From Leucobacter sp. cx-328 (lineage in GTDB: Bacteria; Actinomycetota; Actinomycetes; Actinomycetales; Microbacteriaceae), in NCBI RefSeq assembly GCF_014530035.1, contig NZ_JACVMX010000001.1:124001-188000 (forward strand): DNA of 64,000 bases, written 5' to 3'. Under the pieces are notes generated by a model. It had not been told where the DNA came from. It was given only the letters and a program-made list of their open reading frames with translations, and made no database searches. Of the stretch, positions 56,722 through 63,733 are shown piece after piece. The position numbers were made by a program, and so were the translations under genes. Position 1 is the first letter of the stretch. The number at the start of each line of letters is the position of its first letter.

Positions 56722-57348
56722 TTACGCTAGCGACAGCCCGGCCGTCGTTCTTGCGCGCCTGACCGAGAAGGGGCTAGCGAGGTTGCCGGTGCCGACACCA
56801 TCCGAATCACGCCGCAACAACCAGATCTCACCGTTCAAGATACGGGGGACTTCGGTGTTGGTGATCCGCGCCAAACCTGCTCGCAGCATGGCGCCGTGAG
56901 CGACGACGATCGAGCCGGGAGCGGTCGTCAGGACGCGCTCGAATTCGCGGGCGGTGCGATCGGCGAGCACGTCGAGGGATTCTGCTCCCGGGATGATGAG
57001 GCCTGGCCAGCGGTCCATCGCTTCTGCAACATCCAAGCCTTCGGCTGGACCAAAGTCGCGCTCGATGAACGCGTGGTCAATGGCCGGGGGAGTGAGGCCG
57101 AGGGATTGCGCGATGATGGCCGCGGTCTCGTGCGCGCGGCCGAGCGGCGACGAGACGACGGAGTGCCAGGCGACTGACAGATCAAGCGCGGCAAGTAGCT
57201 CGCCTGTCGCTCGCGCCTGGGCGCGGCCGGTCTCGTTCAACGGTACCTCGGTGCGGCCCTGGATGCGGCGGGCGCTATTCCAATCGGTCTCACCGTGGCG
57301 AACGAGTGCAATTACCTCGGGCGAATCAGCGGGCGTGAACTCAGTCAT
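56722..57348 (-). CDS. Histidine phosphatase family protein
   Basis: A 208-residue phosphatase of the phosphoglycerate-mutase superfamily. The catalytic loop LVRHGETDWN is at the N-terminus, the Arg in SSPLGRAHETA and the second His in SIVVAHGAMLRAG complete the site. The substrate is unknown. Its ATG overlaps the stop of the upstream ABC ATPase gene by 4 bp, so it can be co-translated with the transporter. A TAGCCT box 6 nt before the ATG would also allow separate transcription. Confidence 0.9.
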   Translation of the reverse strand: MTEFTPADSPEVIALVRHGETDWNSARRIQGRTEVPLNETGRAQARATGELLAALDLSVAWHSVVSSPLGRAHETAAIIAQSLGLTPPAIDHAFIERDFGPAEGLDVAEAMDRWPGLIIPGAESLDVLADRTAREFERVLTTAPGSIVVAHGAMLRAGLARITNTEVPRILNGEIWLLRRDSDGVGTGNLASPFSVRRARTTAGLSLA

Positions 57349-58451
57349 GCCGCAAGGCTAGCTGGTTCGCGCGTCTGCGTCGAAGGCTGGGGCATTGGTG
57401 TCGGCTGGGAGTCGGACGGGTACAGCGTGCCGCCGGTGATCTCGATGCGCACGCGATCGCCGACCGCTGCGCGAGTTCCGCTCACTCTGCTGCGCAGGGA
57501 AAGGCCGGCCCAGTCGAGCATGATGTCGTCACATTCGCGGCCGAAGAGTGCGGATCGTACGATGGCAGGCCCTGCCGGGTCGAGCACCACACGCACGTCT
57601 TCTGGGCAAATCGCGAGCTCCACGGCACCGCACGCGAGTGTGGAGTCGAGCACTTCGGCAGGAACTCGCAGCTCGTGTCCTGCGGCAACGAAGCGGTGAC
57701 GGGTGAGCGCCCCCGGCACGATCGTCGCGTCGGCGATGAACTTGGCGACGAACGGCGTCGCGGGTTGCGCAAGCAATTCGGCTGGGGTGGACTGCTGTTG
57801 GATGCGTCCGCCGTCGAGTACGACGACCCGATCCGCGATCGCGAGCGCTTCGCCGCGGTCGTGCGTGACAAAAATGACCGTGAGGCCGAGCTCCCGCGTG
57901 AGTGCACGCAGCTCGAGCCGCAACCGATCGCGCAGCGGCTCATCGAGCGCCGAAAGCGCCTCGTCGAGCAACAGCACCCGGGGTCGCGCGACGATGGCGC
58001 GGGCGATCGCCACTCGCTGCCGCTGCCCGCCAGAGAGTGTCGCTGGGTTTCGCTTCTCGGTGCCAGCGAGCCCGACGAGTTCGAGCACCTCGGCTACTCG
58101 GCGGTCCCGCTCGGCGCGGCTGACACCAGCGCGCTTGAGCGGGTAGGCGACATTGCGCCCGACGTTCCAGTGCGGCCAGATCGCGTGCTGCTGGAAGACC
58201 ATGCCGAGCCCACGATGCTCTGGCTCAATCGCACGGTCTGCGCTTGCGACGATCTCGTCACCGATGCGGATCGTGCCAGCGGTCGGCCGGGCAAACCCTG
58301 CGACGGCACGCAGCAGGGTGGTTTTGCCAGAGCCAGAGGGGCCGACGAGGGCGATGAACTCGCCGTCACCGATGGTGAGGTCGATATCGGCGAGACCGAG
58401 ATGACCGTCTGGGAATGCGAGACTGACGGATTCAAGGGCGACAGATGACAT
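57345..58451 (-). CDS. ABC importer ATP-binding protein (FbpC/PhnT-like)
   Basis: A 368-residue ATPase: Walker [14 protein letters not shown]-loop [12 protein letters not shown], signature [15 protein letters not shown], Walker [14 protein letters not shown], switch His in [14 protein letters not shown], and a C-terminal TOBE-type domain (~270-350). The class feeds on iron, polyamines, sulfate or organophosphonates. The start at 58451 begins [15 protein letters not shown]; the frame continues upstream but belongs to the permease's antisense frame. It follows the permease gene by 8 bp. Confidence 0.9.
57355..57360 (-). promoter_or_regulatory. -10 box of the histidine phosphatase gene (leaderless type)
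   Basis: TAGCCT on the minus strand, exactly 6 nt before the ATG at 57348 and inside the 3' end of the ABC ATPase gene. Confidence 0.5.
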
Positions 58452-58459
58452 GCGTAAAC

Positions 58460-60136
58460 CTAACGAGGGGTGCGCGCGGTGAGGCCGAGTCCGGCCAAGC
58501 CGACGAGCGCGACGATGAGCGACAGCGCCGAGGACGCGTTGTACGCCCCGGCCTGTTGCAGGTTGAAGATGACGACACCGAGAGTCTGTGATCCCGGCGA
58601 AAGCAGCAGCACGGAGAGCGTGAGCTCGCGCACAGCGGTGAGGCCGACGAGGACGGCCCCAGAGATCGCGGCGGGCACGGCCATACGGCAAGAGATGTCC
58701 CAGAGGGCGCGGATCCTGGAGGCGCCAGAAATTCGTGCAGCTTCTTCGGCAGTGGTTGGCGTTGCAGAGAGCGGCGCACTCACCGACTGCACCACGAGGG
58801 CGAGGAATGAGGTGAGGTAGGCGCAGAGGATGATCCACGGGGTATCGCGGAGCCCGATGTACGGCGCGATGACGAGCCATGCGACGGCGATCACGAGCCC
58901 GGGGATTGCTTGTGGCAGGAGCGCGAGCCCGAGCATCGCCGGGTTTGCGCGGGACTGGGTGCGGGTGACGAGCGTGCCGATCGCGAGTCCGAGCACACCG
59001 CAGATGAGCGCGGCGGTGATTGCGAGGAACAGCGAGTTCGAGACACCGGTGAGCGTGCCAGACGCGGTGAGTGCGCGGGCGAAGCTGTCGAGCGTGATGT
59101 TCTCTGGGGTGAACGGTACACCCGGTGCGGGCAAGAGCGCCTGCATTGCGAGGGTCACGAGCGGCAGCACGGTGAGTGCCGCGATGCTGAGCGTCGCAAT
59201 CACACCGACCAGGCCGCGTGCGCGACCGAGGGGCAGTAGCGCGGGGGCTGCGGCCTGCACGTCAAGCTCGACCCTGGTCTGCGCGCGCAAGAGATCAACA
59301 ATTACGCCGAGCAGTGCGATAACGAGCAATACAAAACCGATGGCGGCAACGACCGCGAGCGGGTCTTCGACCGTGCCCGACTGCAGGTAGCGATACACGA
59401 GCGTTGACAGGGTCGCGTACTTTCCGGGCGACCCAACGAGCGAAGGGATGCCGAAGTCTGCGAGGTTCGCGACGGCAACGAGGGTGAACGCTGACAACAT
59501 CGCGGGACGCAGGAGGGGGACGGTGACCTCCCACAGCGAGCGGATCGCCGAGGACCCTGCGATGCGGGCTGCCTGCTCGAGATCCGCCGGGACGCGTTTG
59601 AGGGCTGCGGTCACGATCATCATGGCGATGGGGAAGCTGTGCAGAGTGAGTAGGAAGATGACGCCGTCGCCGCCATAGAGATTCCACAACGGCTGACCGA
59701 ACTGACTCTCCCACCACCGGTTGAGCGCAGAGCTCGGGCCGAGGAGACTCAGCCAAGCGATCGCACCAACGAACGGCGGAATGAGCATGGGGCTGAGCGC
59801 CAGCACACGGAGTGCGCGACGCCCAGGAAGATCGGTGCGTTCGAGCAGGATCGCGAGGAACGTGCCTACGACGACCGCGAGCGCACCAGACAGGGTGGCC
59901 GAGACGAGCGAATTCACCGCTGCCTCAAACACAGTCGACGAGAGCAGTTCACGCCACCCGCCGCCCGTCGCCGCAAGTACGATGATCGCGCCGATCGGTA
60001 CAACGACGAGCGCGGTGAGTGCGAGCCAGAGTGCTCCGCGCGTGAGCGTCAGCCCATCAGCGCGACGCACCCCGGCACGGGGGAGGCCCAGTCGAGCCAC
60101 CCCCGCAACCGGAAACGTATTACTGGAAGAGGCCAT
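58460..60136 (-). CDS. ABC importer permease, double-domain (FbpB-like)
   Basis: A 558-residue permease made of two fused six-helix units, each with an EAA-type loop (DLEQAARIAGSSAIRSLWEVTVPLL; TAEEAARISGASRIRALWD). Fused permeases are typical of the iron(III)/2-aminoethylphosphonate-type importers. The N-terminus (~30 residues) is basic and cytoplasmic. Its start overlaps the end of the binding-protein gene by 17 bp. The substrate is not fixed by sequence. Confidence 0.9.
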   Translation of the reverse strand: MASSSNTFPVAGVARLGLPRAGVRRADGLTLTRGALWLALTALVVVPIGAIIVLAATGGGWRELLSSTVFEAAVNSLVSATLSGALAVVVGTFLAILLERTDLPGRRALRVLALSPMLIPPFVGAIAWLSLLGPSSALNRWWESQFGQPLWNLYGGDGVIFLLTLHSFPIAMMIVTAALKRVPADLEQAARIAGSSAIRSLWEVTVPLLRPAMLSAFTLVAVANLADFGIPSLVGSPGKYATLSTLVYRYLQSGTVEDPLAVVAAIGFVLLVIALLGVIVDLLRAQTRVELDVQAAAPALLPLGRARGLVGVIATLSIAALTVLPLVTLAMQALLPAPGVPFTPENITLDSFARALTASGTLTGVSNSLFLAITAALICGVLGLAIGTLVTRTQSRANPAMLGLALLPQAIPGLVIAVAWLVIAPYIGLRDTPWIILCAYLTSFLALVVQSVSAPLSATPTTAEEAARISGASRIRALWDISCRMAVPAAISGAVLVGLTAVRELTLSVLLLSPGSQTLGVVIFNLQQAGAYNASSALSLIVALVGLAGLGLTARTPR

Positions 60137-61142
60137 TGAACGTCTGTACTGCGTCAGCCTGGGTCGCGCGGATCATCTCAAGATCGGGCGAGAGGAACGT
60201 GATGTCGGAGACCTTCGGCGCACCCGCGGGGCCGGTGACGTCTTCGCGGATCGGCAGGTACGACTGCGTTGCCGCGATCTCCTGGCCCTCCTTGCTGATG
60301 AGGAAGTCAACGAAGAGCTTCGCTGCCTCGGGCTCGTCAGTGTTCTCGAAGATGCCTACGGGCTGGGTGACGTAGGGGACACCCTCCGACGGGTAGACCG
60401 CCTCGATGGGGGAGCCAGCAGCCGAGAGGTCACGGACGAGCGAGTCGACCACGATGCCTACCGGGTTGCTGCCGTCAGCGACTGCCTGCGAGACGGGGCC
60501 GTTGCTGTCAGCGATGAGCGGCTCGTTCTTGGCGAGCGCCTCGAGCCAGGTCTTGCCCAGCTTGTCATTGTCAAGCCAGACCGCAGCGTTGTACGCTGCC
60601 GCACCCGAAACATCGGGGTTCGGCATCGCAATCTTGCCCGCGTACTGTGCGTCGGTGAGATCCTGCCACGAGGTCGGCGCGTCAGTGACGATGTTCGTGT
60701 TCACCGCGATGACGGTCGGCAACAGGCGGGTGCCAACGTAGAAGCCCTCGGGATCTGACATCTCAGGCATGATGTTCTCGGCTTCAGCTGACTCGTACTG
60801 CAGCAGCAGGTCACGCGCCGCGTAATCCTCGAATGTGGCAGCGTCAGCAGCGAGCAGCAGATCCGCGCCAATGTCGCCCGACTTCTCCTCGGCCGCGATA
60901 CGAGCGGTGAGGTCACCGGTACCCGCGCGGAACACCTCGACCTCGATCTCGGGGTGCACGGTGCCGAACGCTGAGACGAGCTCGTCGATCTTCTCCTGCG
61001 GCTCCGAGGTGTACAGGGTGAGCGATGCTGGCTCAGCGTCCTTCGCGGGCTCTGCGTCAGCAGCCGGCGACGAGCAACCCGTCAGCGCGATCGTGCCGAG
61101 AGTGAGCGCGGCAATCGCACCGAAAGCGTGCTTGCGAATCAT
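60120..61142 (-). CDS. ABC importer substrate-binding lipoprotein
   Basis: A lipoprotein of 340 residues with a signal peptide ending in LTGCSS and a periplasmic-binding-protein type II fold (LTLYTSEPQEKIDELVSAFGTVHPEIEVEVFRAG; VSGAAAYNAAVWL; AAKLFVDFLISKEGQEIAA). Fold and neighbours resemble iron/phosphonate binding proteins of the FbpA/PhnS group; the Tyr-Tyr iron pair typical of FbpA is not evident. AGGAGA lies 6 nt before the ATG. Confidence 0.9.
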   Translation of the reverse strand: MIRKHAFGAIAALTLGTIALTGCSSPAADAEPAKDAEPASLTLYTSEPQEKIDELVSAFGTVHPEIEVEVFRAGTGDLTARIAAEEKSGDIGADLLLAADAATFEDYAARDLLLQYESAEAENIMPEMSDPEGFYVGTRLLPTVIAVNTNIVTDAPTSWQDLTDAQYAGKIAMPNPDVSGAAAYNAAVWLDNDKLGKTWLEALAKNEPLIADSNGPVSQAVADGSNPVGIVVDSLVRDLSAAGSPIEAVYPSEGVPYVTQPVGIFENTDEPEAAKLFVDFLISKEGQEIAATQSYLPIREDVTGPAGAPKVSDITFLSPDLEMIRATQADAVQTFNGLFQ

Positions 61143-61200
61143 GTGGTTCTCCTAAATAACAAGAAATGAGATGTACGGGAAAGACAGAAAGAACAAACCG

Positions 61201-62028
61201 TCAACGCTCAGTAAGCGCCGCGGAAGCTGATGCGCTCGCCGCAGAGGTGAGCGGTTTCCGGAAGAGCGGCTGCGGTTCACACAGGCTCACGGTGGCGACG
61301 CTGACCTCGTGAGACGTCAGTCTGACGAGCGAAAACATGGGGGAGTCGTGGCCGGCGACGGAATTGGGATCCGCGTCCATCACCTGGTGATAGGCGAGCG
61401 AGGGGCCGACAAAGACCGGGATGCCATCGGCGGTCGCACTCAGCGGGTGATGGAAGTGGCCAGCAAGGAGGGCGCGCACGTCGCTTCCGCGCAGCACACG
61501 CAAGAGCTCGTCAGCATCGCGCAACCCCTGCTTGCGGAGCGCCGGCAACGGCGAATCAAGCGGCGCATGATGGATCGCGATGATCGTTCCACGGCCATAC
61601 GGGGCGCGGATCGTGTCAGCTAGCCAGGCGAGCTGCTCGCCTCCGAGACTGCCCGTGTGGGAATCGAGCCGAACGAAGCGGAAATCCTCGATGTGCGTGA
61701 CGCCGAAGTGGCTTGTCTCGTGCCCGGTGAGTGTGCGAGCGGCGACCGGATCATCGTGGTTGCCGAGCACCGTGAGTACGGGAGCGCCGAGCTCGTGCTC
61801 GAGTCGGCGGCACGCGAGTTCAAATGCTGCGTACGCGCCAGGGTTCTCGCGCTGCACGAGGTCGCCGGTGATAAGCACGACCTCCGGTGTGATGCCCGCC
61901 TCGGTTGCGTAGTCGCTCACGCTCCGTAGGCGTGCAAGGCCATCGACCGCACCGTAGAGTTCACCCGACTCCGTCGCGTGGACATCGCTGAGGTGCAGCA
62001 CCGTGAAGCGACCGGTCGCGCGACTCAT
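61201..62028 (-). CDS. Calcineurin-like metallophosphoesterase (CpdA/GpdQ-like)
   Basis: A 275-residue cytoplasmic phosphoesterase. All metal-site motifs are present in order: LSDVHAT (Asp, His), ITGDLVQ (Asp), LGNHDD (Asn, His), AIHHAPLD (His), AGHFHHPL (His pair). The family hydrolyses phosphodiesters such as cAMP or glycerophosphodiesters. There is no signal peptide, so its substrate must be inside the cell. ATGA overlap with the upstream phosphatase gene and a 58-bp gap to the transporter link it to both. Confidence 0.9.
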   Translation of the reverse strand: MSRATGRFTVLHLSDVHATESGELYGAVDGLARLRSVSDYATEAGITPEVVLITGDLVQRENPGAYAAFELACRRLEHELGAPVLTVLGNHDDPVAARTLTGHETSHFGVTHIEDFRFVRLDSHTGSLGGEQLAWLADTIRAPYGRGTIIAIHHAPLDSPLPALRKQGLRDADELLRVLRGSDVRALLAGHFHHPLSATADGIPVFVGPSLAYHQVMDADPNSVAGHDSPMFSLVRLTSHEVSVATVSLCEPQPLFRKPLTSAASASASAALTER

Positions 62029-62711
62029 CGAATTGCTCCGGCGAGGGCGCGGGACTGCAGCGCGTTGAGCGCCTCCCGCGGTGTGCCGTTCGCGAGCAGG
62101 TATTCGGTGGCGCCGCCGAGCGCGTCGAGCTCATCGAGTGCGAGGCTCAGGGCTGCGGCGGGGCTGTCGAGGTGGAGGCGTTCGGCGGCTGCCCGATCCG
62201 CTCCCGCAATTCCTAGGCCGTTGAGCTGACGCGTCACCAGGTCGATGCGCTGCGGGCGGACGCGGTCACCGGAGAGCTCGTAGTCGGCAACGACCGTCGC
62301 GCGGTCATCGCCAGCTGCGAGCCGGGCGAGTGCCACGACGAGACCCGTACGGTCCTTGCCCGCTGCACAGTGCACGAGGCTGGCTCCCTCGGTCACTGCG
62401 AGCTGCGTGACCGCGAGGGCGAGCGCCCGCCCGCTGTTGCGGAGGAGGCCGAGGTAGACCGCTTCGAGCGTGCCATCGGCCGGCGGGGCTGCGCCGTACA
62501 GTGGCACCGAGACGACCGGGAGTGAGTGACTGCGCGGCGCGTGCTCCGAGGTCTCGCGCAGGTCAATGATCTGAGTGACACCGAGGTCGCGCAGCTGGTG
62601 TTCGTCGGCTGCGGTGAGCGTATCGACCGCTGCGGTGCGCACGAGCCAGGGGGTGCGCGGATCGCCAATGCTGCGTGCGTTGTAGGTCCCCTGCAGGGTG
62701 AGCTCGTTCAC
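62025..62711 (-). CDS. Cys-based tyrosine/lipid phosphatase (MptpB-like)
   Basis: A 228-residue phosphatase with the active-site loop HCAAGKDRTG (CX5R). The extra Lys-Asp is typical of MptpB-type enzymes that also attack phosphoinositides. Upstream are TYNARSIG and VTQIIDLRETSEH, conserved in this family. GTG 62711 (about 8 nt after CTGGAGAC) is preferred; the ATG at 62762 would add 17 residues. There is no signal peptide. It is the first structural gene of the minus-strand operon. Confidence 0.88.
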   Translation of the reverse strand: MNELTLQGTYNARSIGDPRTPWLVRTAAVDTLTAADEHQLRDLGVTQIIDLRETSEHAPRSHSLPVVSVPLYGAAPPADGTLEAVYLGLLRNSGRALALAVTQLAVTEGASLVHCAAGKDRTGLVVALARLAAGDDRATVVADYELSGDRVRPQRIDLVTRQLNGLGIAGADRAAAERLHLDSPAAALSLALDELDALGGATEYLLANGTPREALNALQSRALAGAIR

Positions 62712-62768
62712 CAAGTGCGTCTCCAGATTCTTCGTGTGATTCGTGATGCACCGCCGTTTCATGTGGGA

Positions 62769-62782
62769 TGAAATGCGTTACA
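62769..62782. promoter_or_regulatory. Candidate RpiR-type operator
   Basis: TGAAATGCGTTACA is an imperfect palindrome (TGAAA ... TTACA), the half-site style used by RpiR/HexR-type regulators. It lies between the regulator gene and the phosphatase gene it probably controls. Confidence 0.5.
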
Positions 62783-62866
62783 GGAATCACTCTCACGGGT
62801 GCATATGACCGCTCGGTGAATCGGGAGGGAACCCGGAGTGAAGACTCGGGGCGTGGTGTGAACTTG

Positions 62867-63733
62867 CTAGTCAGCGGAGTCTGACAGTGCCGTAGCGACG
62901 ACGTCAAACATGCCGGTTGCGTCGCCGCGGCCTGCGAGCTCCGTATACGCGGTAAGGAGCGCGTGCAGCGCGACCGAGTGGTTCACACGCGAGAAAAATG
63001 GGTCAACTGCCTGCTGGGAGCTGCGCGATCCTGTCGCGATGACGGTGTCGGCAAGCTCTGGAATCGGTGCGTGGGAATAGCTGCACACCACGATGACGGT
63101 GGCGCCAGCCTGCTGCGCCGCGCGCACGGTCGCCAGGGTGTGCGCATTGGCGCCGGAGTGCGTGAGCGCGAGGCACACGTCGTCGGGGCCGAGGGTGTGC
63201 GCGGTGAACTGCTGCGCCAAAATGTCGAGTGGTGACTCGACGGGGCGTCCAACCGTTGCGAAACGCATTGCCGCATCTTGGAGTGGTGGTGCAGAGAAGC
63301 CATTTGCCGTAAACATAATTCGGTTGGCGCCCAACAGCGTCTGCGCCGCCCGCATCACGGTCGAACGGTCAATTGCCGCCGCGCTCAGCCGCAACGCTTC
63401 CTGCGCCCCAGTGAACGACTGCGTGACGGCATCCAGGCTCGCGCTCGTCCCCGCTGACTGCAGGGGAGCGCCCTCGCGCGCCAACTCAAGTCGCAGGTGC
63501 TGGTACCCGCGGAACCCGAGCCGCTGGCAAGCGCGCACCACCGTAGCGGCAGAGGTGCCAGCGGCGGCCGCCAATTCCTGCGTCGACCAATCAGGGATTT
63601 CGGCGCAACGATCCAAGATCACTCCCGCCACAGCGCCCTCACTCGGGCCCAGGCTCGGTTTCAGGGCGCGGATCAGTGCAAGTGTTGGCGGGACAACGCC
63701 GGCTGGCGAAGAAACTTCAGAGGATCGCTGCAT
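62867..63733 (-). CDS. MurR/RpiR-family regulator with SIS domain
   Basis: A 288-residue regulator: N-terminal RpiR helix-turn-helix (STQELAAAAGTSAATVVRACQRLGFRGYQHLRLEL) and a C-terminal SIS domain (ANRIMFTANGFSAPPLQDAAMRF; CLALTHSGANAHTLATVRAAQQAGATVIVV) that binds phosphorylated sugars or polyols. ATG 63733 is chosen because TACCGT lies 6 nt upstream and the longer frame (63862) adds residues unlike the family. It precedes and runs the same way as the phosphatase/ABC cluster. Confidence 0.92.
   Translation of the reverse strand: MQRSSEVSSPAGVVPPTLALIRALKPSLGPSEGAVAGVILDRCAEIPDWSTQELAAAAGTSAATVVRACQRLGFRGYQHLRLELAREGAPLQSAGTSASLDAVTQSFTGAQEALRLSAAAIDRSTVMRAAQTLLGANRIMFTANGFSAPPLQDAAMRFATVGRPVESPLDILAQQFTAHTLGPDDVCLALTHSGANAHTLATVRAAQQAGATVIVVCSYSHAPIPELADTVIATGSRSSQQAVDPFFSRVNHSVALHALLTAYTELAGRGDATGMFDVVATALSDSAD

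What the first reader, a model, noticed from the sequence alone, without database searches (positions are those of the whole stretch)
56722..63733. Candidate organophosphate uptake and dephosphorylation system under an RpiR/SIS regulator
Seven minus-strand genes are packed together: RpiR-SIS regulator, CX5R phosphatase, metallophosphoesterase, binding lipoprotein, fused permease, ABC ATPase, histidine phosphatase. Several overlap by a few bases. Three unrelated phosphate-ester hydrolase folds with no signal peptides sit with one importer. This suggests that an intact phosphoester (glycerophosphodiester, phospho-polyol or inositol phosphate are possible) is imported and stripped inside the cell, with the SIS domain sensing a phosphorylated intermediate. 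The MptpB-like active site makes an inositol-type substrate worth testing. I know of no characterised system with this exact set.
Basis: partly seen in the sequence, partly recalled or inferred. Interest (0 to 1): 0.72.

Follow-up and report, generated by a model that had tools for sequence, protein, structure and literature searches.

The report
Organophosphate import-and-dephosphorylation operon in Leucobacter
A conserved but uncharacterised seven-gene unit in actinobacteria such as Leucobacter appears to import an intact phosphate-bearing nutrient and strip its phosphate inside the cell with three different hydrolases, and a second, apparently independently assembled operon of similar design points the same way.

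Summary
Observation confirmed: seven minus-strand genes, RpiR-SIS > PTP (PF13350) > class III metallophosphodiesterase (MPE) > SBP > fused permease > ATPase > histidine phosphatase. Of 35 loci with an SBP of 50% identity or more, 25 hold all seven and 33 hold PTP+MPE; no other gene family recurs beside them across genera. In Leucobacter, SBP, MPE and PTP orthologues lie in the same 20 of 54 genomes. The SBP's nearest solved relatives by sequence bind organophosphates (VcA0625, AfuA, P5PA); it keeps most of AfuA's phosphate site, not its sugar site. A palindromic operator precedes PTP, its only exact copy in the genome. Other Leucobacter genomes carry a second RpiR+PTP+MPE operon with a Ugp-like importer; its MPE and PTP belong to other branches, suggesting independent assembly. 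On 10 of 19 examined plasmid loci, SBP relatives lie with an MBL-fold hydrolase, 9 of these also with a phosphatase. Best reading: intact import of an organophosphate, probably a diester, then intracellular diesterase and phosphatase steps, as in agrocinopine catabolism. Substrate unknown; inositol neither shown nor excluded.

The parts
62867..63733 (-). RpiR/MurR-type regulator, HTH_6 + SIS domain (288 aa); probable repressor of the operon
   Evidence: Pfam HTH_6 and SIS; start refined; homologue at the head of the unit in 29 of 35 loci
62756..62774 (-). palindromic operator ATTTCA-N7-TGAAAC, 44 b upstream of the PTP start; preceded by a further half-site TGTAAC
   Evidence: only exact match of RTTTCAN7TGWAAC in the 2.64 Mb genome; 12 of 12 matches to a related pattern upstream of PTP in 19 of 29 relatives
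62025..62711 (-). CX5R phosphatase (PF13350, atypical-lipid-phosphatase type, P-loop HCAAGKDRTG), first gene of the operon
   Evidence: Pfam; P-loop residues H, C, G, K, D, R, T, G invariant in 18 of 18 operon members aligned; only PDB match MptpB 1ywf
61201..62028 (-). class III metallophosphodiesterase (Rv0805/SpdA type), probably cytoplasmic
   Evidence: phmmer to Rv0805 E 2.2e-36; motif residues D15 H17 D56 N90 H91 D92 H154 H191 H193 invariant in 17 of 17 aligned
60120..61142 (-). substrate-binding lipoprotein of the AfuA/P5PA-like type
58460..60136 (-). fused (two-half) ABC permease, 558 aa
   Evidence: two BPD_transp_1 stretches; PhnU2-like 150 bits versus cutoff 593
57345..58451 (-). 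ABC importer ATPase
   Evidence: Pfam ABC_tran; PhnT2-like 295 bits versus cutoff 458
56722..57348 (-). histidine phosphatase (branch 1)
   Evidence: Pfam PF00300; R17 H18 G19 and H151 invariant in 13 of 13 aligned

Best explanation
The operon is a dedicated uptake-and-catabolism unit for an intact organophosphate, most probably a phosphodiester of a sugar or polyol. The lipoprotein SBP captures the phosphorylated compound outside the cell. The fused permease and ATPase import it unhydrolysed. In the cytoplasm the class III metallophosphodiesterase splits the diester, and the ALP-type PTP and the histidine phosphatase remove phosphate from the resulting monoester(s), giving an alcohol or sugar plus Pi. 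RpiR represses the operon at the palindrome before PTP and is released when its SIS domain binds a phosphorylated intermediate. Shown here: gene set, conservation, operator conservation, homology and predicted fold of the SBP, intact catalytic motifs. Inferred: diester rather than monoester, order of steps, intact import, RpiR binding at the palindrome, ligand of the SIS domain, identity of the substrate.
For: Conserved unit; same 20 of 54 Leucobacter genomes for SBP, MPE and PTP, adjacent in each. The three nearest solved SBPs by sequence bind organophosphates: 8x1a/VcA0625 (G6P; PDB title), AfuA (G6P/F6P/S7P) and P5PA (pyridoxal phosphate) (PMC4546632 and PMC8427247 read as passages). AfuA phosphate-site positions S37, G38, S148, G149, G185 are T75, G76, S179, G180, G215 here, and helices start at 75, 180 and 214 in the model, as in P5PA where three helix N-termini face the phosphate. 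MPE and PTP motifs are intact. Recurrence: a Ugp-like importer with RpiR+PTP+MPE in 7 of 7 fetched regions (12 of 54 genomes have this second pair), with MPE and PTP on other branches. SBP relatives of 34-43% identity: 10 of 19 hand-picked plasmid loci lie with an MBL-fold hydrolase, 9 of these with a phosphatase (four folds); DeoR, SorC or LacI regulators lie next to five of the ten (L019, L020, L102, L109, L151). Distant SBP homologues: 1 of 45 loci has any such hydrolase.
Confidence: 0.62

Rival explanations
1. Monoester scavenger: the importer takes up a sugar- or vitamin-phosphate monoester (AfuABC/P5PA style) and the hydrolases simply remove the phosphate; the MPE acts as a phosphomonoesterase or on a side product.
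For: Nearest solved SBPs bind phosphomonoesters. Most phosphate-site residues conserved. The Aerococcus relative lies beside PTS genes, a HAD phosphatase and a fructose-6-phosphate aldolase.
Against: An enzyme with the class III diesterase motif accompanies the importer in 33 of 35 actinobacterial loci, and an MBL-fold hydrolase (a fold with known diesterases, recalled) in 10 of 19 plasmid loci. AfuA His205 and Glu229 positions are V232 and V258, and Tyr103 is R/K in 24 of 24.
Confidence: 0.22
2. Nucleotide salvage: the ligand is a 2',3'-cyclic nucleotide or short RNA breakdown product, opened by MPE and dephosphorylated to a nucleoside.
For: Rv0805 and SpdA, the nearest characterised enzymes, prefer 2',3'-cyclic nucleotides; other-phylum clusters hold SurE 5'/3'-nucleotidase, a PNKP-type HAD and an MBL protein weakly like RNase J and aCPSF1; the Devosia locus has a nucleoside hydrolase gene some 3 kb away.
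Against: No nucleosidase recurs next to the actinobacterial unit (recurrent families only); regulators are RpiR-SIS, DeoR, SorC and LacI types, which as families mostly sense sugars or sugar phosphates (recalled); SpdA's Km of 3.7 mM suggests cyclic nucleotides may not be the true substrate of such enzymes.
Confidence: 0.1
3. 2-aminoethylphosphonate (or another phosphonate) importer, as the best NCBIfam models say.
For: Best models PhnS2, PhnU2, PhnT2.
Against: Scores 133/393, 150/593 and 295/458, all below cutoff; the only recurrent partners are the phosphoesterases and RpiR, which are not C-P bond enzymes (family knowledge). The genome was not searched for phosphonate genes elsewhere.
Confidence: 0.03
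4. Ferric iron importer with unrelated phosphatases carried along.
For: Iron binders share the fold; databases annotate such permeases as iron transporters (for example).
Against: The adjacent tyrosines of FbpA-type proteins are S234 and L235 here (alignment to 7w3w; ligand role recalled; most relatives have Tyr then Leu or another residue); co-conservation with phosphoesterases.
Confidence: 0.02

Closest known systems
Agrocinopine catabolism (acc) of Agrobacterium: AccR, AccA-E, AccF, AccG (PMC4526662, passages read)
   Same: ABC import of an intact sugar phosphodiester, cytoplasmic phosphodiesterase (AccF), putative phosphatase (AccG), repressor that senses the phosphorylated cleavage product and not the imported compound
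   Different: Different regulator, importer and enzyme families (Acc family assignments recalled, not compared by a call); substrate here unknown; extra histidine phosphatase
AfuABC hexose/heptose-phosphate importer and P5PAB pyridoxal-phosphate importer (PMC4546632, PMC8427247, passages read)
   Different: No dedicated hydrolases mentioned in the passages read; sugar-site residues His205 and Glu229 and Tyr103 differ here
UgpABCE glycerophosphodiester/glycerol-3-phosphate importer (recalled)
   Same: Organophosphate import; the second Leucobacter operon has a Ugp-like importer with PTP+MPE+RpiR
   Different: The window importer scores best against PhnS2/U2/T2 models, not Ugp; regulator is RpiR-type
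Rv0805/SpdA class III phosphodiesterases (PMC4222275, passages read)
   Same: MPE is of this type, motif complete
   Different: Operon MPEs form one side of a 100/100 branch against 17 other family members
Atypical lipid phosphatases such as MptpB (PMC3091653, passages read) and Pho16B (PMC6409689, passages read)
   Same: P-loop HCXXGKDR[TA]G, PF13350
   Different: No sign of export, unlike secreted MptpB and Pho16B; predicted role here catabolic

Membership tests
AfuA-type sugar-phosphate SBP | sugar-coordinating His205, Asp206, Glu229 of AfuA | tested here: not met
   V232, D233, V258 in the profile alignment, one of three kept; in the ungapped pairwise alignment none is kept
AfuA/P5PA organophosphate-binding SBP group (broad) | phosphate-site residues (AfuA 37, 38, 60, 148, 149, 150, 185) and helix N-termini | tested here: met
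   Five of seven kept or conservative: T75, G76, S179, G180, G215; Thr60 and Thr150 are D100 and A181. Helices start at 75, 180, 214
Ferric-binding protein FbpA | adjacent tyrosine pair (195/196 in H. influenzae FbpA, ligand role recalled) | tested here: not met
   S234, L235 at these positions (alignment to 7w3w)
2-aminoethylphosphonate transporter PhnS2/U2/T2 | NCBIfam curated cutoffs | tested here: not met
   133 vs 393, 150 vs 593, 295 vs 458 bits
Class III cyclic nucleotide phosphodiesterase | D-Xn-GD-Xn-GNH[E/D]-Xn-H-Xn-GHXH (PMC4222275) | tested here: met
   D15, G55-D56, G89-N90-H91-D92, H154, G190-H191-x-H193 invariant in 17 of 17
SpdA / CpdA equivalogs | NCBIfam equivalog cutoffs | tested here: not met
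   71 vs 400 and 68 vs 225 bits: same superfamily type, no named equivalog
Atypical lipid phosphatase | P-loop HCXXGKDR[TA]G (PMC3091653) | tested here: met
   H131 C132 G135 K136 D137 R138 T139 G140 (numbered from the old start) invariant in 18 of 18
Atypical lipid phosphatase | activity on phosphoinositides | not testable with these tools
   needs an assay
Alpha-ribazole phosphatase CobC | NCBIfam TIGR03162 cutoff | tested here: not met
   88.7 vs 162.9 bits; a histidine phosphatase of unassigned substrate
Agrocinopine-type catabolic operon | importer + cytoplasmic diesterase + phosphatase + product-sensing repressor | tested here: inconclusive
   gene types present; diester substrate and product sensing untested

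The most novel reading that the evidence does not exclude
The unit is a new class of environmental phosphodiester-nutrient pathway: an AfuA-like importer branch specialised, with an Arg/Lys in place of AfuA Tyr103, for a still unknown sugar or polyol phosphodiester, spread across phyla, and assembled repeatedly with non-homologous diesterase-type (MPE or MBL fold) and phosphatase (PTP, HPase, HAD, SurE, DSP) partners; the same enzyme pair also joins a second, Ugp-like kind of importer.
Probability: 0.35. Interest if true: 0.76.

Novelty: new variant of a known kind. Interest (0 to 1): 0.6.

Why it matters
Phosphodiesters are a large, poorly traced part of environmental organic phosphorus, and few bacterial systems are known to import them intact (Ugp, agrocinopine; general knowledge). 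A conserved unit with its own regulator, operator and three hydrolases, plus a second assembly of similar parts, gives a directly testable route to a new nutrient class. It also suggests that 'iron ABC transporter permease' annotations in this SBP branch are wrong, and it offers a bacterial metabolic role for ALP-type phosphatases, known mainly as virulence factors.

Tried and rejected
Rfam search of the window: nothing. Mobile origin: the SBP has only three weak phage hits and plasmid relatives are all under 60% identity. Further operator sites in the own genome: apart from the exact site, one-mismatch sites only; the neighbours of six of them (labels by eye) included a peptide-type SBP gene, an amino-acid-type importer and a peptidase, and gave no substrate hint. 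Other recurrent neighbours across genera: none under the rule used, two or more genus groups and four or more loci. Histidine phosphatase near the type-B operons: judged separate, since its distance varies. Literature searches returned no paper; others (20 of 25 listed; 12 of 17,772 listed; 4; 15 of 47 listed) showed none describing this set in titles and abstract starts. Searches supplied the papers read. Xanthosan uptake (PMC12807533, passages read) was considered only as another sugar phosphodiester used as a nutrient; its putative TonB-dependent transporter and 2H-phosphoesterase are unlike these genes.

Selection notes: the 35 near loci are all loci with SBP identity of 50% or more (L021-L054 and L058); the other 45 of 80 were the distant controls, which come from other taxa. 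Plasmid loci were 19 records picked by hand for spread of genera out of 101 at E 1e-25, so the k of 19 counts are not a random sample; L108 is cut by the record end. Type-B regions: 7 of 12 fetched; in L164 RpiR lies about 2 kb from the ATPase; one search read six of the seven. Trees used the window, 19 of the 33 loci with MPE and PTP, 7 type-B and 10 other rows (for PTP one of 11 others, the own-genome paralogue L184, dropped out by the length or E-value filter); L172 is itself an adjacent PTP+MPE pair but was labelled 'other'. In one search the window's own operator scored 7 of 12 because the extracted stretch stopped at the old ATG; searches show the exact site. The operator pattern was written from these same sequences, so its shuffles overstate significance. 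AfuA numbering was mapped by counting on the printed alignment (chain index minus 2).
Full report
WHAT IS THERE. The operon lies between cls and an acyltransferase-like gene on one side and clpC on the other (these three labels by eye). Seven minus-strand genes were confirmed by Pfam and NCBIfam. The PTP start is probably GTG at 62711, not the ATG at 62762: most relatives align from there, and the upstream ATG falls inside a conserved palindrome.

IS IT A REAL UNIT. One search gave 80 loci; 35 have an SBP of 50% identity or more (Leucobacter, Microbacterium, Agrococcus, Homoserinimonas, Yaniella, Auritidibacter, Paeniglutamicibacter, Arthrobacter, Nesterenkonia and a Micrococcaceae MAG). Of these 35, 25 hold all seven genes, 33 hold PTP and MPE, 29 RpiR and 28 HPase. 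Two of the ten incomplete loci end with the contig (L030, L042). In four loci (L043, L045, L046, L048) HPase has moved in front of RpiR but stays in the unit. L044 and L054 hold the transporter alone. An all-against-all comparison of open frames found no family other than the seven, apart from shadow frames over the same genes, present in two or more genus groups and four or more loci. In 15 of 16 Leucobacter loci the unit sits near cls, lysS or clpC, but none of these was found beside it in the 19 loci of other genera. Presence is patchy: 20 of 54 Leucobacter genomes, 8 of 120 family genomes at E below 1e-100, 6 of 297 order genomes at E 1e-60, 5 of 296 phylum genomes with the wider profile at E 1e-70. 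The same 20 Leucobacter genomes hold the strong MPE and PTP orthologues, next to the SBP. Among the 8 family genomes, MPE is adjacent in 7 and PTP in 6; G064 has neither and G116 no PTP. The own genome has one full MPE of this type besides a weak partial hit, and at least two other PF13350-like hits.

HYDROLASES. MPE is a class III phosphodiesterase nearest to Rv0805 with the motif residues invariant in 17 of 17. PTP has the atypical-lipid-phosphatase P-loop, invariant in 18 of 18 (motif from PMC3091653). HPase keeps RHG and its second His in 13 of 13. None looks exported. MPE-type enzymes are common in the family (88 of 120 genomes), PF13350 relatives less so (32 of 120).

REGULATION. A 19-b palindrome RTTTCA-N7-TGWAAC ends 44 b before the PTP start. 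It is the only exact match in 2.64 Mb; with up to one mismatch 19 matches were found, two of them the site itself on its two strands, against 5 for the reversed control pattern. A slightly wider pattern scores 12 of 12 upstream of PTP in 19 of 29 relatives, where at most 1 of 200 shuffles reached it. Ten loci, six Micrococcaceae and four Agrococcus, do not reach it. RpiR binding is inferred from position and conservation.

A SECOND ASSEMBLY. Searching MPE and PTP in 54 Leucobacter genomes also gave a weaker adjacent MPE+PTP pair in 12 genomes, two of which (G412, G443) have both kinds. Seven of the 12 were fetched. All seven hold RpiR, ATPase, SBP, PTP, MPE, permease, permease in this order; in L164 RpiR is about 2 kb off. 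The importer is Ugp-like, judged on one protein of each kind from three genomes: UgpC 429 bits against a cutoff of 432, UgpE 142/297, UgpA 94/335, UgpB 38/411, the SBP scoring slightly better with a carbohydrate SBP model; so it is not a certified Ugp. Six of the regions were read before the ATPase and carry their own inverted repeat, roughly GTTTCCT...AGGAAAC. In trees of 37 rows each, type-A MPEs form one side of a 100/100 branch, and type-B MPEs (100/99) lie on the other side among ordinary family paralogues. Type-B PTPs group with 8 of 10 other PTPs (95/92), while type-A PTPs do not form one group: the Micrococcaceae ones stand apart, and two other PTPs fall among the rest. The trees are unrooted. 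The two operons thus look independently assembled, which argues that importer + RpiR + diesterase + ALP phosphatase is a functional combination and not an accident.

OTHER PHYLA. SBP relatives of 34-43% identity occur on many plasmid records. Among 19 loci looked at, 10 hold an MBL-fold hydrolase next to the importer, and 9 of these also a phosphatase: histidine phosphatase, PNKP-type HAD, SurE or a dual-specificity phosphatase. DeoR, SorC or LacI regulators lie beside five of the ten. Six of 19 hold none of the tested hydrolases, though L146 has a PhoX phosphatase, and three have hits outside the unit. Among 45 loci with distant SBP homologues only one had any hydrolase hit; these come from other taxa, so the control is imperfect.

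MECHANISM AND LIMITS. The best-supported picture is intact import, then diesterase, then phosphatase, with derepression by a phosphorylated product, as shown for agrocinopine where AccR binds the cleavage product and not agrocinopine (PMC4526662). Diester rather than monoester is favoured because a diesterase-type enzyme accompanies the importer in two enzyme folds, but no experiment here shows it. Inositol remains possible, not favoured over other polyols or sugars. I found no description of this set in the searches named under Tried and rejected; the library holds open-licence papers only.

Noticed in passing
L158-L164 (unnamed Leucobacter genomes G412, G450, G457, G421, G424, G443, G411): A second RpiR + PTP + MPE operon built around a Ugp-like ABC importer; six of the seven regions were read upstream and carry their own inverted repeat before the ATPase gene.
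   Followed up: partly
L019 12647-14717, L102 10686-12702, L145 9625-11260, L151 9632-12270: Alphaproteobacterial AfuA-like importers followed by an MBL-fold hydrolase and a phosphatase of varying fold (HPase and HAD, SurE, DSP).
   Followed up: partly
L148 755-6613 (Phyllobacterium plasmid): Next to the SBP and permease genes and transcribed the other way is a second ABC importer cluster with a LacI regulator and a gene annotated phosphodiesterase that matches MPE (26% identity).
   Followed up: no
L033 (Leucobacter celer), between RpiR and PTP: A perfect inverted repeat with 27-b arms and one base between them ends about 270 b before PTP; origin unknown, perhaps a mobile-element remnant or terminator.
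   Followed up: no
G000:C7:282283-282301 (L131): A one-mismatch copy of the operator palindrome lies about 200 b upstream of a gene that looks like an oligopeptide-type binding protein (by eye); could be a second target or chance.
   Followed up: partly
H81/H82, Acinetobacter phage MD-2021a records: Records of 329 and 379 kb labelled phage carry a gene annotated afuA; perhaps host DNA in the record.
   Followed up: no
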